Of a stretch of 22,567 bases of DNA, positions 15,393 through 21,321 are shown piece after piece (position 1 is the first letter of the stretch; each line of letters starts with the position of its first letter). Origin of the DNA: a virus; IMG/VR virus record IMGVR_UViG_3300037847_000430, positions 1 through 22,567 of that record; one strand, 5' to 3'. Both the position numbers and the translations under genes were made by a program. The notes beneath the pieces are model-generated. The model made no database searches, had not been told where the DNA came from, and saw nothing but the letters and a program-made list of their open reading frames with translations.

Positions 15393-18035
15393 TTATGCTG
15401 CTTGCGTCCATGTTGAACTATCTAGTGTAATATCTGAAAAAAGCGGCTCTGTTAATTCGAAATAAACTTTAAATGTTCCTATTGCAGAACCTTTTGACGC
15501 TAGAACGTAACTTAAAACAGGATTATTAGATAATGTAATTACTGGTGTACGCATCCAAAATTCATAACCTGCAAAAGCAGGTGACGATGCTTCAGTGTAG
15601 ACAAACCCATTAGAAAACCTATTAGCGCCTGTACCTGAACTTGGTGTGTTAGTTGTATTTAATCTGCTCCACCTGCCATTATTAGCTCCATCAGGAATAC
15701 CTGCAAAAGTTGCATTTTCATAACTAGTTGAGCTAGTTGACGTTTGATATTGTGGATTTGTTGACCAAGTGGCTATAGACCCATCAACATTTATATTATC
15801 TAATTGTAAATCTGCTTTAAAAAAATCACTTCCAGAATTAGGGTCTATCTGATGATAAAATACTATTCTTCCTGTTTTGTTTTTATATCTTGTTATATCT
15901 TCTGTTATTGTTCTCCAACTTTCGTCTGGTGGTTCCGTAGAAGATATTAAATTCAACCCAAGATTAATAGAAATATCTATTTCACTAAAATTCGTATTTG
16001 CAGAACTTACATCTGACCAAATTTCTGATGGTGGTAAGTTTTCTGTATAATCATCATCATCTGTATCTGTTGTTGCATCCCAAGGATTTTTAGTGCTTTG
16101 AACCTCAACATTATTGGTAATTACATCATCACCTGCTAAGAAATGTAGCTGCGTTATTGCTGTAGTCTGAACATCAACACCACCTATAGAAATGGTAGGT
16201 TGCATATTGTGTATCTGGGTAATGCCAGTTTGGTCTATAACTGGCGCTTGCGCTGTAACATCGTCACTTAAAAATTCTATCTGTATAACAGCATTGGTAT
16301 CATCCACTGTTACTGCACCAGAGGTTACATCATCAGACGTAAGTACATGATTTCCTGTTAATATTGCATTATCAACGCTTGGTTGCTGTGTAGCTATGTC
16401 TGCGCTTGCAAATAGGTGATCTTGTATGAATACAGCAGGTGCAATTCTAACTGTTCCAGTAAATACGTCAGGCGCACTAAATGTTTCATCTTCAAAAACA
16501 GTTAGTGACGGAACATCAGCAGGTCTGCCATTATAAACCGCTTCTATGTTATGTATTTGGCTTATAGATGTTTGGGCTACTGTCGGCGTACCATAATTTA
16601 TGTCTGAAGCAGCAAAATCAAAAGAGAATATACAAGTGGTTGTATCTATCTCTACGTTTCCAAGCGATATATCTGTTGATGAAAATGGGTGATTTTGTGT
16701 AAATACACCCTGAGATATAGATATTGCGCCACTTGTAACACTGTCGTTTGTTAAGTCATGGACTTGTGTAATGGCAGAAGTCGCAACATCAACATTATCT
16801 GTTTCGGCATTATCACTAGTAATATTGTGAACTTGCGTAATTGCTGTAGAGTCTATTGAAACCGAGCCTGTGCTTATTGCATCATGGTTGTCTAAAGTAT
16901 GAATTTGCGTAATATTAGTTGATGCAACCGTAGGCGCTCCAAAAGTAATATCAGAAGCACTTAAATCATGGTTTTCGTCTAAATTTGTGCTATCTATGCT
17001 GACCGCTTGCGCTTCAACATCTTGCGAACCTAAATCATGTATTTGCGTTAATACGCCATTTGGTAAACTTACATTACCAGTTTCGGCATTGTCTGTGCTT
17101 ATGTCATGTATTTGCGTAATAGCTGTCGATGCTACAGAAACACTTCCTGTTGCTAAATCTGCACTTGAAACTGCATGGTCTTGGCTAATAGCTATCGTTG
17201 TATTTGCGTCTGTGTCAGCACTCCAACCCATATTTGAATGGTTAGAACAGTAGTAATAAAGTTGCGGTGCGCCTACCGCTACAGTTATTTCTGTATATGC
17301 CCCAGATTGACCCGCCGTTCCAACAATCGTTACACCTGTTGTATATTCTGAACCACTTGCATGAGTGCCATTTGCTGTTGTTGAAAACCTTAATGGATGA
17401 TTAGCGTTAGAACTATCTGACTGATCAAACCTATACGTTCTACCCTCTATTAAAGTTACAGCTACATCAGCCGTTGCTGTTGACCCATCTATGGCGAATT
17501 TATTCGTTGAACCAACATTATAATATGGGTGGTCTGACGGATTGCCACCGACTACCGTAACTGCAAATGTTTCTGTGGCGGCAGTGCTTGATAACGTTGG
17601 AACTCCAAAAGTTATATCGGCAAGTGCAAAATCGTTATTTTCAGTGATAGCTGTGCTTGCGATATTTACATTTTGCGCCGTAACATCTGTTGACTGCAAA
17701 TCATGGTTTTGTGTTAAAACACCACTAGCAACTCTAACTGTTCCAGTAATGACGTTAGGTGCTGAGAAACTTTCGTCCTCAAACATTGTTCCATTTGGAA
17801 CACTTGCACCATTGCCATTATATGTTGCGTCTAAGGAATGGTTTTGACTTATAGCACTTGTGTCAATTACAGGGTTTTGCGTAATTACACTTTGCCCTGC
17901 AAAAACGCCTAGCTGAGATAAAGTGCCTTCTGCTACCGTAGGCGCATTTGTTGTTACATCGCTCCCACTTAGGGAAACATTCTTAACCCCTAAATCACCT
18001 AATGGTGCAGATGCTAAAGGGTTAAGACCTAACAT
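15393..18035 (-). CDS. Repeat-built tail fibre with cupredoxin-like domain
   Basis: This 880-aa protein has no signal peptide or membrane segment. Its body consists of about twenty copies of a 23-residue unit with the consensus ITQ-x-H-D-(L/I), then a DV-TG-V-(S/D)-V type strand. Units run across residues about 17-150 and 280-645, separated by a domain at about 155-275 that looks like a cupredoxin. A distinct block with YNG, VP and FEDE-FSAP appears twice (about 69-112 and 498-541). Residues about 646-880 form a non-repetitive, beta-rich C-terminal domain with an ITRYKNKTGRIVFYH segment and an LQLDNINVDG motif, recalling lectin-like jelly rolls. Most likely a tail fibre with an elongated stalk and a distal binding domain. 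Its ATG overlaps the stop of the preceding small gene. Confidence 0.82.
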   Translation of the reverse strand: MLGLNPLASAPLGDLGVKNVSLSGSDVTTNAPTVAEGTLSQLGVFAGQSVITQNPVIDTSAISQNHSLDATYNGNGASVPNGTMFEDESFSAPNVITGTVRVASGVLTQNHDLQSTDVTAQNVNIASTAITENNDFALADITFGVPTLSSTAATETFAVTVVGGNPSDHPYYNVGSTNKFAIDGSTATADVAVTLIEGRTYRFDQSDSSNANHPLRFSTTANGTHASGSEYTTGVTIVGTAGQSGAYTEITVAVGAPQLYYYCSNHSNMGWSADTDANTTIAISQDHAVSSADLATGSVSVASTAITQIHDISTDNAETGNVSLPNGVLTQIHDLGSQDVEAQAVSIDSTNLDENHDLSASDITFGAPTVASTNITQIHTLDNHDAISTGSVSIDSTAITQVHNITSDNAETDNVDVATSAITQVHDLTNDSVTSGAISISQGVFTQNHPFSSTDISLGNVEIDTTTCIFSFDFAASDINYGTPTVAQTSISQIHNIEAVYNGRPADVPSLTVFEDETFSAPDVFTGTVRIAPAVFIQDHLFASADIATQQPSVDNAILTGNHVLTSDDVTSGAVTVDDTNAVIQIEFLSDDVTAQAPVIDQTGITQIHNMQPTISIGGVDVQTTAITQLHFLAGDDVITNNVEVQSTKNPWDATTDTDDDDYTENLPPSEIWSDVSSANTNFSEIDISINLGLNLISSTEPPDESWRTITEDITRYKNKTGRIVFYHQIDPNSGSDFFKADLQLDNINVDGSIATWSTNPQYQTSTSSTSYENATFAGIPDGANNGRWSRLNTTNTPSSGTGANRFSNGFVYTEASSPAFAGYEFWMRTPVITLSNNPVLSYVLASKGSAIGTFKVYFELTEPLFSDITLDSSTWTQAA
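16116..17198 (-). repeat. Array of 23-residue (69-base) repeats in the 880-aa fibre
   Basis: Residues about 280-640. The ITQ-x-H anchor recurs at about residues 281, 305, 328, 351, 374, 398, 421, 444, 468 and 490, spacing 22-24, and the array then continues less regularly to about 626. Typical units read AITQIHDISTDNAETGNVSL and AITQVHDLTNDSVTSGAISI. The copies are diverged, so the DNA repeats are inexact. A regular unit of this length suggests a stacked beta-solenoid or fibrous stalk. Confidence 0.8.
17211..17573 (-). other. Cupredoxin-like domain with type-1 copper ligand pattern
   Basis: Residues about 155-275 of the 880-aa fibre. Strands VAVTLIEGRTYRFDQSDSSN and NHPLRFSTT are followed by APQLYYYCSNHSNMGW. 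Candidate ligands are His213, Cys263, His266 and Met269. The C-x2-H-x2-M spacing agrees with that of amicyanin, from memory, and a His on the earlier strand fits the cupredoxin layout. I recall related YYYC-NHS-MG modules in marine phage proteins. Copper binding is not shown. Confidence 0.7.
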
Positions 18036-18498: not shown

Positions 18499-21321
18499 TT
18501 AATTTCCTTCTAATGTTGCAATTCTAGCCTCAAGACTATCAACTTTTGCAGATAATTCCTGAACTGCCTTTACTAGTATCGGATAAGTCCTTACATAGTC
18601 AGCTTCAAGCCTGTCAGGGTTTTCCGAATTTACTAATCTTGTTCTTGTTGCGGATGAATGTTCAATTTCAACATCCATTAAGTCTTGAGCAATAAATCCC
18701 ATGTCTTTCTTAGTGCCGAAAGTGCCATCACGCCTGTTCCAAGTAAACTGAACAGGGCGCATATCGTTTATAAAATTTAAACCGTAAGATAAATCTTCAA
18801 TAGCTGTCTTGTCACGTTCATCAGACAAACTTGATATAGTTTGCACATTACATCTAATCGAACTTATGGAAAAATTTCCAAGAGTGACTTCGTTATTTAC
18901 AGTGCCAGTTGAAGGGTTCGCTTGGTATCCAAGACACAAATTATTTGACCCTGTTGTAATAGAAGAGCCTGCCTGATATCCCATACAAGTGCTTTGACTT
19001 CCAGTTGATATCATACCTCCACTGTCATAACCGCAACCAGTATTATAGGCTCCAGAACCTAATCCATCTAAAGATCGGCTACCTATTCCAGTATTGTAAC
19101 TGCCAGTTCCTCCAGAATAACCTGTTTGGTATCCAACAAAGGTACAATAGTCACCTCCATCAATATCGTAACCAGCTTGGAAGCCTACGAAAGTTCCATG
19201 GTCACTTCCATTTATTCCAGAAGCCATTGCTTGCATACCAACAGCAGTACCGTAACTTCCAGTAACAACAGCACCGTAGCCAATTGCAACTCCGTTGTGG
19301 TAATTACTATCAGAAGCATAACCAACACAAGTTTGATTATCGCCTGAATAAGTACCATCTAAAGCAGCGTTACCAACAGCCACATTATAATAAGGATTGC
19401 TAGTAGAGTAACGCCCTATTGCATCGAAACCAATGGCAACTGATTTATAATGGTTGCCATCTGAAGCGGCAGCATAACCTACGGCTGTACAGTCATCGCC
19501 CCAGTTATCAGTACCTGCAAAAGTACCAACCATTACTTGATCGTCTTTATTCGAATTACTATAGTTCCCTGCGTGATACCCTAAATAGGTGTTATTAGCA
19601 CCAGCATAACCCTGACCAGCCTGTGATCCCACTGCTGTATTTTGATTGTATGTAGTAATAAGTTCCCCTGCTCTAGCTCCTACAAAAGTGTTGTTGTCTC
19701 CTGTCGTAAGGTCTTCCCCTGCAAGCGCACCTATAGCAGTGTTATTTTGAGGATTGGTTGAATTTATATCAAAAGAGCTAAGTGCGTTTACACCCAAAGC
19801 AGTATTGCTAGAAAATTGATTGCTACCAGTAATTGTTGGGGTTCCACTACCAATATACAAAGAATAATTGGGTGCATCCTCTGTCATTGATACTGATGAA
19901 CCGCCAGATGCGTCTTGCCATGTTGCGTTTGTGCCATCTGACGTTAAAACTTGACCATTAGTTCCAAAACCTGACCCTGCATAGATACCTGCCGACAAAT
20001 ACAGATTTTTAAAACGTCTATCGCTTCTCCCTAAATTTATAGCGTCATCGTTTGCGGAACCATTACCTGCGAAAGCAGGGGTTGATGCGCCACCAAATGA
20101 AAGCTGATTATTTGCAGTTTTAAGGATCATAAATTCGCCAGTTGCATCTACCAAAAGGGTAGTGCCATTAGCGCCAGTACTTCCTATCGTGCCTATTGTT
20201 GTTCCTGCTTGTCTTAGGTCTATTAAATTTCCGTCATCGCCTAATCTATTTGCTATAAACGGAACATTGCCATCAACGGTTGAACGAACGCCCAATTCGT
20301 CAGACATAGCAACACCAACGGTTGAAATGCCAGTATTACCTTTACTAATTAATACTGCTCTGTCATTTTGTACAGTCAGCCTAGCGCCTTGAGCAACATC
20401 AGCAATGCTAAAAATTCCATTAGAGTTTCGAACTTCCCACTTAGTATAAGCTGCGTCAGTAGTATCCTCTAACCTAATTTCAGGATTACTGCCGCTTATA
20501 TGAAGTTGTGCGGCAGGGTCATCTTGTCCAATTCCAACGTCCCCATCCAAACCAATAGTAAGTAAATTAGCTTCAGCCCCATTTAACTCGCTTCTAATAT
20601 GGATATTATTATCTGTATTTGACCCTGCGGAACCTTCATAAAAAATAGAAACTGCATTACTACTACCTTCTCTAAACAAAATTTTAGAGTCTTGGTCAGC
20701 GTCTGAAACTATAAAAACAGTAGGTGAAGCAGCATCTAAATACATATCGCCAGAAACTTGTACACCGCTAGAAATAGTTTCGAATGTTTTCGTGTTGTTA
20801 AAATAAAGAGAAACGTTTCCGTTACTCGTTGCTGTCATATATGTTTCTAATCCAGTACCAGTTTTTAATTCAAAACTAGTTGCTTGTATGATTAGATTGC
20901 CAGTACCACCTTCTTTTATGTAACTGTTACTACCATCATGATAAATGCCTAAATCTGACCCATCGCCAAATAATGCCATATCACTATCAGCAAATTTTAC
21001 GTTACCGTTACTTTCTTTTAAAACTAAGTCCTGATAGGCTGCGGTAATAAATACCTCAACATCGCTTCCAGAGAGGCTTAAAAGCGACCCCGTAGAACTT
21101 TCAGTGAGCGTTCTGGATAAAGTAGTTCCTGTAGCTGTATAAGTTCCAGTTCCTATTTCGAAATTAGTACCGTCTACAATAACGTATCTTACAACGTCAC
21201 CGTCCGAAATACCGCCATCAGCAAACGTTTGAAAACCGTCAAAGGCACTTCCTAATGTAATAGTGCCTGTGCCAGTTGTGCTTGTTCCGACCTTTACCCT
21301 GTTTGCTAAGACATTAGCCAT
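18499..21321 (-). CDS. Tail fibre with peptidase S74 chaperone domain
   Basis: This 940-aa protein has AGGAG upstream. Its N-terminal 105 residues ([20 protein letters not shown] onward) match an anchoring module that I recall in marine phage fibres. Residues about 105-330 are beta-rich ([18 protein letters not shown] and [18 protein letters not shown]). About eighteen units of NT-x-x-G-x-x-A-G type run over residues about 505-815, a trimeric beta-roll. Residues 833-940 are the intramolecular chaperone of endosialidase (peptidase S74): SDERDKT at 833-839, a FTWNRRDG segment, a DMGFIAQDL motif and a final leucine-rich coiled coil. In this family the C-terminal part helps trimerisation and is cut off before the conserved Ser, here Ser833. 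Probably a host-binding fibre or spike. Confidence 0.9.
18502..18825 (-). other. Peptidase S74 self-cleaving chaperone domain
   Basis: Encodes residues 833-940. Ser833-Asp834 begin the SDERDKT motif recalled from this family. The domain would be released after trimerisation, so the mature fibre would end near residue 832. A coiled coil with a heptad-like [17 protein letters not shown] end closes it. Confidence 0.85.
18877..19809 (-). repeat. NTxxG-type beta-roll repeats in the S74 fibre
   Basis: About eighteen imperfect units such as [27 protein letters not shown] and GTFVGFQAG, separated by 8-20 variable residues (residues about 505-815). The later units replace hydrophobic positions with Cys ([26 protein letters not shown]). 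This pattern is that of trimeric beta-rolls of the YadA-head kind, with variable loops on the outside. Confidence 0.75.

What the first reader, a model, noticed from the sequence alone, without database searches (positions are those of the whole stretch)
17211..17573. Cupredoxin-like domain with complete copper ligand set inside a phage tail fibre
In the 880-aa fibre, residues about 155-275 interrupt the 23-residue repeats and carry His213, Cys263, His266 and Met269 with the C-x2-H-x2-M spacing of amicyanin. A tail fibre that binds copper, or uses a former copper site for receptor recognition, is unusual. I recall that similar YYYC-NHS-MG modules recur in marine phage proteins, but their function is, as far as I know, not described. 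It might act in binding a copper-handling host surface protein, as a redox or stability site, or only as a beta-sandwich.
Basis: partly seen in the sequence, partly recalled or inferred. Interest (0 to 1): 0.62.

Follow-up and report, generated by a model that had tools for sequence, protein, structure and literature searches.

The report
Copper-site-like domain in phage tail fibre
A tail fibre of this probably marine virus of bacteria carries a domain whose sequence and predicted fold match blue-copper proteins and whose four metal-binding residues are kept across hundreds of marine phage relatives, so these virus particles may carry copper, which nobody appears to have tested.

Summary
Residues 155-275 of the 880-aa fibre (window 17211-17573, minus strand) are a compact domain with His213, Cys263, His266 and Met269 at the stated spacing.

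The domain is a cupredoxin by predicted fold and by sequence link. AlphaFold2 gives a confident all-beta model (pLDDT 93.7), and its best PDB matches are mostly cupredoxins, at weak E-values. A secreted Prochlorococcus protein passes Pfam's plastocyanin cut-off and also matches the phage-domain profile (E 2.6e-11). Profile alignment puts all four ligands in register with plastocyanin.

It is a large family: hundreds of marine viral contigs, 336 of 50,697 deposited phage records, and lipoproteins of SAR86 bacteria. Of 321 copies, 304 keep His-Cys-His-Met. Where both can be read, the first His and the Cys are lost together or not at all. Cys and His codons vary freely, so selection acts on the protein.

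Best reading: a metal-binding, probably copper-loaded, cupredoxin module on marine phage fibres, filled after release and used in attachment or to stabilise the fibre. Metal and function are inferred, not shown. I found no paper describing it in the held library.

The parts
15393..18035 (-). 880-aa tail fibre gene that carries the domain
   Evidence: ORF; tail-fibre PHROG families; a 98%-identical sister fibre segment in another contig, L390
17211..17573 (-). cupredoxin domain, residues 155-275
   Evidence: profile span in the identical fibre of L002; AlphaFold2 pLDDT 93.7; Foldseek cupredoxin matches; profile link to PF00127 proteins
17397..17399 (-). His213 codon, putative first copper ligand
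   Evidence: invariant in alignment A2; CAT/CAC vary freely among relatives
17247..17249 (-). Cys263 codon, putative copper ligand (thiolate); the only Cys of the domain
   Evidence: invariant in A2; TGT/TGC vary freely
17238..17240 (-). His266 codon, putative copper ligand
   Evidence: invariant in A2; CAT/CAC vary freely
17229..17231 (-). Met269 codon, putative axial ligand
   Evidence: nearly invariant; replaced by His in two relatives
16116..17189 (-). 23-residue repeats after the domain (residues 283-640), with a ladder of histidines
   Evidence: periodicity at 23 and 46; 9 of 14 His have a partner 23+-1 residues on, 0 of 10,000 random placements
17592..17969 (-). N-terminal repeat part of the fibre before the domain (residues 23-148)
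   Evidence: same repeat motif by eye

Best explanation
The segment is a genuine cupredoxin domain (SHOWN by predicted fold plus profile linkage; about 0.93). Its four-ligand site is kept because it binds a metal (INFERRED from coupled retention; about 0.75), most likely copper in a type-1-like site (INFERRED; about 0.65). It sits as an interchangeable module on the tail fibre between repeat stretches (SHOWN by sequence). The fibre is made in the copper-poor cytoplasm as the apo form, and the site would load copper after lysis, in seawater or at the next host's surface (INFERRED). Loading would fix the Cys-His-Met loop at one end of the beta-sandwich. The domain then works as an attachment or fibre-stabilising module, not as an electron carrier (INFERRED; about 0.4).
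For: Confident all-beta model. PDB matches mostly cupredoxins. The Prochlorococcus secreted protein passes PF00127 (29 bits, cut-off 21.2) and matches the phage-domain profile at E 2.6e-11. Profile alignment with plastocyanins puts all four ligands in register. 304 of 321 copies keep His-Cys-His-Met; first His and Cys are lost together in 9 readable copies and singly in none; on 60% clusters p = 4e-5. Synonymous codon change at the ligand positions. Searches free of motif bias agree. Exported SAR86 lipoproteins with the same intact site. Sister fibre: the block with the domain is exchanged or fast-evolving while the ligands stay.
Against: No metal data. Foldseek E-values against PDB are weak (0.01-0.1) and the first row is not a cupredoxin. 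The window domain itself has no Pfam copper-protein match. hhalign against plastocyanins alone gives only 45%. Ligand distances were not measured. Some copies in cyanophage baseplate and fibre proteins have lost the site, so the fold has uses without it. No direct evidence for attachment.
Confidence: 0.6

Rival explanations
1. Structural only: the four residues are kept for packing or hydrogen bonding of the loop, and no metal is bound.
For: Other core residues (Tyr, Phe, Pro, Gly) are equally conserved. Copies without the site exist.
Against: First His and Cys are lost together, not singly, and full site loss occurs in otherwise recognisable copies, which a packing role does not predict. All four are in register with plastocyanin copper ligands.
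Confidence: 0.12
2. The site binds zinc or another metal in the virion, or the lone Cys serves as a reactive thiol or cross-link between subunits.
For: Cys/His/His sites can bind zinc (general knowledge). Cys263 is the only Cys in the domain. Met becomes His in two relatives.
Against: A free thiol role does not explain coupled His and Met retention. The met-containing plastocyanin-type site favours copper. SAR86 lipoproteins keep the same set.
Confidence: 0.11
3. Copper Trojan horse: the copper-loaded domain is recognised by a host copper-handling surface protein, parallel to the proposed iron-based Trojan horse for phage tail fibres.
For: The iron version has been proposed for marine phages (PMC11705849). 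The domain sits on fibres of phages of SAR11, picocyanobacteria and Methylophilales.
Against: No host receptor is known or was found. The domain also sits in baseplate and other structural proteins, where a receptor role is less direct.
Confidence: 0.13
4. A redox-active copper centre that transfers electrons or removes reactive oxygen at the host surface.
For: Electron transfer is the usual job of cupredoxins (general knowledge). The Nitrosopumilus purple cupredoxin is among the fold matches.
Against: No electron-transfer partner is recognisable among the window's genes that were annotated, and a fibre-bound centre would hardly reach one.
Confidence: 0.04

Closest known systems
Plastocyanin/azurin family (Pfam PF00127 Copper-bind)
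   Same: Predicted fold, ligand order and strand positions; profile alignment puts the four ligands in register.
   Different: The window domain does not reach the Pfam cut-off; first His is followed by Pro; long extra loop between the fourth strand and the Cys strand; carried on a fibre instead of being a free exported protein.
Amicyanin (NCBIfam TIGR02657)
   Same: C-x2-H-x2-M loop spacing.
   Different: Only one of 56 relatives touches the model, at E 0.069; no methylamine dehydrogenase context was seen in the window.
Secreted 139-164-aa cupredoxin of Prochlorococcus (L331-L337)
   Same: Matches both PF00127 and the phage-domain profile; keeps His, Cys, His and a Met.
   Different: Free secreted protein, C-x2-H-x4-M loop, about 29% identical over the aligned columns.
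SAR86 lipoproteins with a C-terminal domain of this family (L267, L275 and others)
   Same: Same domain family, site intact in 20 of 21 copies.
   Different: Cellular, lipid-anchored by sequence; function unknown.
Iron-binding HxH tail fibres (phage T4 gp37; Alteromonas phage R22Y, PMC11705849)
   Same: Metal-binding sites proposed on phage fibres in the sea.
   Different: Iron held by paired His; here a Cys/His/His/Met site within one domain and no HxH motif.

Membership tests
Cupredoxin superfamily (type-1 copper proteins) | Cupredoxin-type beta-sandwich fold | tested here: met
   pLDDT 93.7 all-beta model; PDB matches mostly cupredoxins, probability up to 0.99 but E 0.01-0.1
Cupredoxin superfamily (type-1 copper proteins) | Ligand set His ... 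Cys-x2-His-x2-4-Met | tested here: met
   conserved in 304 of 321 copies
Cupredoxin superfamily (type-1 copper proteins) | Ligands at the usual places: His before a middle strand, Cys at the end of the next-to-last strand, His and Met in the following loop | tested here: met
   secondary structure of the model and profile register with plastocyanin
Cupredoxin superfamily (type-1 copper proteins) | Ligand atoms converge on one point in space | not testable with these tools
   model coordinates are not returned
Cupredoxin superfamily (type-1 copper proteins) | Binds copper, type-1 spectrum | not testable with these tools
   needs purified protein
Pfam PF00127 Copper-bind (plastocyanin/azurin) | Score above the curated cut-off | tested here: not met
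   no match for the window domain; 9 of 56 relatives match weakly, best E 0.0067; linked only through the Prochlorococcus protein
Amicyanin | C-x2-H-x2-M loop | tested here: met
Amicyanin | Match to the amicyanin model TIGR02657 | tested here: not met
   window domain no match; one of 56 relatives at E 0.069
Phage tail fibre protein | Match to tail-fibre families and virion-gene context | tested here: met
   phrog_30742 and phrog_693, partly through the domain itself; neighbouring virion genes
Iron-binding HxH tail fibre | His-x-His motifs along the fibre | tested here: not met
   the His positions of the 880-aa protein include no pair two residues apart

The most novel reading that the evidence does not exclude
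Many marine phage virions carry functional type-1 copper centres on their fibres, and the loaded centre is itself what the host surface recognises, so that infection of SAR11, picocyanobacteria and others depends on copper.
Probability: 0.13. Interest if true: 0.88.

Novelty: new variant of a known kind. Interest (0 to 1): 0.6.

Why it matters
If the site binds copper, phages of the most abundant ocean bacteria carry a metalloprotein module in their particles. That would add copper to the metals discussed for phage-host contact and for metal pools in the sea. It gives a concrete test: express one 120-residue domain and see whether it colours with copper. It also gives an identity to a very common, mostly unannotated domain shared by phage fibres, baseplate proteins and SAR86 lipoproteins.

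Tried and rejected
Single-sequence searches of PDB and Pfam found nothing useful; relatives were needed. A twelve-member alignment was too diverse for the genome contigs pattern scan, so one divergent relative was used instead. Motif-selection bias of the scans was considered and tested: copies not carrying the motif-bearing search pattern are still HCHM in 268 of 281, and motif-free searches of isolates agree. In one search the first-His column was mis-set in my script; one search corrects it. A site-less paralogue was folded as a control; the model was too poor (pLDDT 60) and was not used. Many genome-contig hits on short MAG contigs may be mis-binned phage DNA, so only the long SAR86, Actinomarina and Bacteroidetes contigs were treated as cellular. 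The domain tree mixes cellular and viral rows but has few resolved forks, so no direction of transfer is claimed. Literature searches found no description; only an open-access library was searched. Electron carriage on a fibre was judged unlikely for lack of a partner.

Full report
OBSERVATION. The 880-aa ORF (15393-18035, minus strand) is real. Residues 155-275 map to 17573-17211, and His213, Cys263, His266 and Met269 are exactly as described. The rest of the chain shows a 23-residue periodicity, which the domain interrupts. The record is a 22,567-base viral contig. Its recognisable genes are virion and lysis genes: portal, major head protein, scaffold, DNA-ejection proteins, structural proteins and a spanin-like gene. 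No deposited phage is close at DNA level; the nearest portal, 48.5% identical, is that of a virus of the marine bacterium Octadecabacter.

FAMILY. Two divergent queries gave 223 and 579 more, overlaps not removed. In 50,697 deposited phage records, 336 match; by name they are phages of Synechococcus, Prochlorococcus, Pelagibacter (SAR11) and Methylophilales, plus a few marine or uncultured records. Annotated homes are tail fibres, baseplate wedge subunits and virion structural proteins. In many short relatives of about 240-285 aa the domain is the very C-terminus, and some proteins carry two copies.

FOLD. An alignment of the window domain with 55 diverse members from viral and genome contigs gave an AlphaFold2 model with mean pLDDT 93.7 and pTM 0.87, all beta apart from short turns. 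Against solved structures the leading matches are mostly cupredoxins: plastocyanin, pseudoazurin, Cu nitrite reductase, multicopper oxidases and the Nitrosopumilus purple cupredoxin. Probabilities reach 0.99, but E-values are only 0.01-0.1 and the first row is a semaphorin. In the viral structure library 57 entries match at E <= 0.001, many of them cyanophage structural proteins. The site residues lie where cupredoxin ligands lie: His before a strand, Cys at the end of the next-to-last strand, His and Met in the following loop. Ligand distances could not be measured.

HOMOLOGY TO KNOWN COPPER PROTEINS. Direct Pfam matching fails for the window domain; PF00127 is the family most often hit, below threshold, by its relatives (9 of 56). 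A secreted 148-aa protein of Prochlorococcus MIT 9201 closes the gap: it scores 29 bits against PF00127 (cut-off 21.2) and E 2.6e-11 against the phage-domain profile. Profile-profile alignment with plastocyanins from cyanobacterial genomes places all four ligands in register. The probability is 45% for plastocyanins alone, 93% with the bridging proteins included and 98% for the bridging proteins alone.

CONSERVATION OF THE SITE. In alignment A2 the only invariant columns are one Tyr, the first His, the Cys and the second His; Met is nearly invariant. Over 321 copies, 304 are His-Cys-His-Met. Nine readable copies have lost both the first His and the Cys, none has lost only one, and two replace Met by His. 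On clusters at 60% identity (25 kept, 4 lost both, 0 partial) the exact probability is 4e-5; clusters are not fully independent. The scans used peptide patterns, one of which held the motif, but copies without that pattern are still intact in 268 of 281. In 13 isolate genomes searched with the profile alone, 23 of 32 copies are intact; where the first His is gone, the Cys is gone too or the end of the domain does not align. Cys and His codons vary synonymously (TGT/TGC 199/109; CAT/CAC 182/126 and 187/120), so the residues are held by selection and not by recent descent. This is what a jointly used metal site predicts.

CELLULAR RELATIVES. SAR86 bacteria carry the domain on long chromosomal contigs: 36 of 81 related genomes match. 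Typical SAR86 proteins are 167-188 or 305-326 aa with a lipoprotein-like start, a glycine-rich linker and the domain at or near the C-terminus; 20 of 21 copies are His-Cys-His-Met. Others are large cadherin/RTX or subtilase proteins. Exported lipoproteins are where cupredoxins commonly function (general knowledge). Viral and cellular rows are mixed in the tree, without a resolved direction.

MODULARITY. A sister fibre (L390) is nearly identical, but residues 111-275 differ more than the rest: 14 amino-acid and 30 silent codon changes in 165 codons, against 13 and 37 in the other 715. This fits exchange of a block that holds the domain, with the ligands unchanged.

MECHANISM. Shown here: a cupredoxin-type domain, with the site under joint selection, on a fibre. 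Inferred: that it binds metal, that the metal is copper, that it loads after release from the copper-poor cytoplasm, and that it serves attachment or fibre stability. A copper version of the iron Trojan-horse idea (PMC11705849) is possible but has no direct support.

KNOWN OR NEW. The fold and site are a known kind. Their use as a recurrent virion module in marine phages is not described in any paper I could find. Only an open-access library was searched, and fold-based databases may already label such regions as cupredoxin superfamily; that was not testable here.

Noticed in passing
16116-17189 (-), residues 283-640 of the fibre: A ladder of histidines, one per 23-residue repeat (I-T-Q-x-H motif): 9 of 14 His have a partner 23+-1 residues on, never reached in 10,000 random placements. 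If the repeats stack, the His would line up along the fibre.
   Followed up: partly
L223, L227 (relatives, domain at residues 61-160 and 63-160): Met ligand replaced by His (YYYC-GNH-xNH-GG) with the other three ligands intact; an altered axial ligand or another metal is possible.
   Followed up: no
L037, L040, L045, L046, L047, L053 and L025: Neighbouring large structural proteins carry divergent copies without the site, beside a copy that keeps it.
   Followed up: partly
BFVD entries A0A481Z6J5, A0A481YWX9, A0A481YY19, A0A481Z7Q7: 'Beta-sandwich proteins' of deep-sea Pithovirus and Marseillevirus assemblies match the same fold at E 5e-8 to 3e-6; whether they keep the ligands was not examined.
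   Followed up: no
15393-17700 (-), residues 111-275 against L390: A block containing the domain diverges more than the rest of the fibre between two close phages, as if exchanged by recombination.
   Followed up: partly
18499-21321 (-): A second large tail protein of 940 aa ends in an intramolecular chaperone of the endosialidase type (Peptidase_S74, E 8.9e-13) with a YadA-like repeat, so the phage probably has two kinds of fibre or spike.
   Followed up: no
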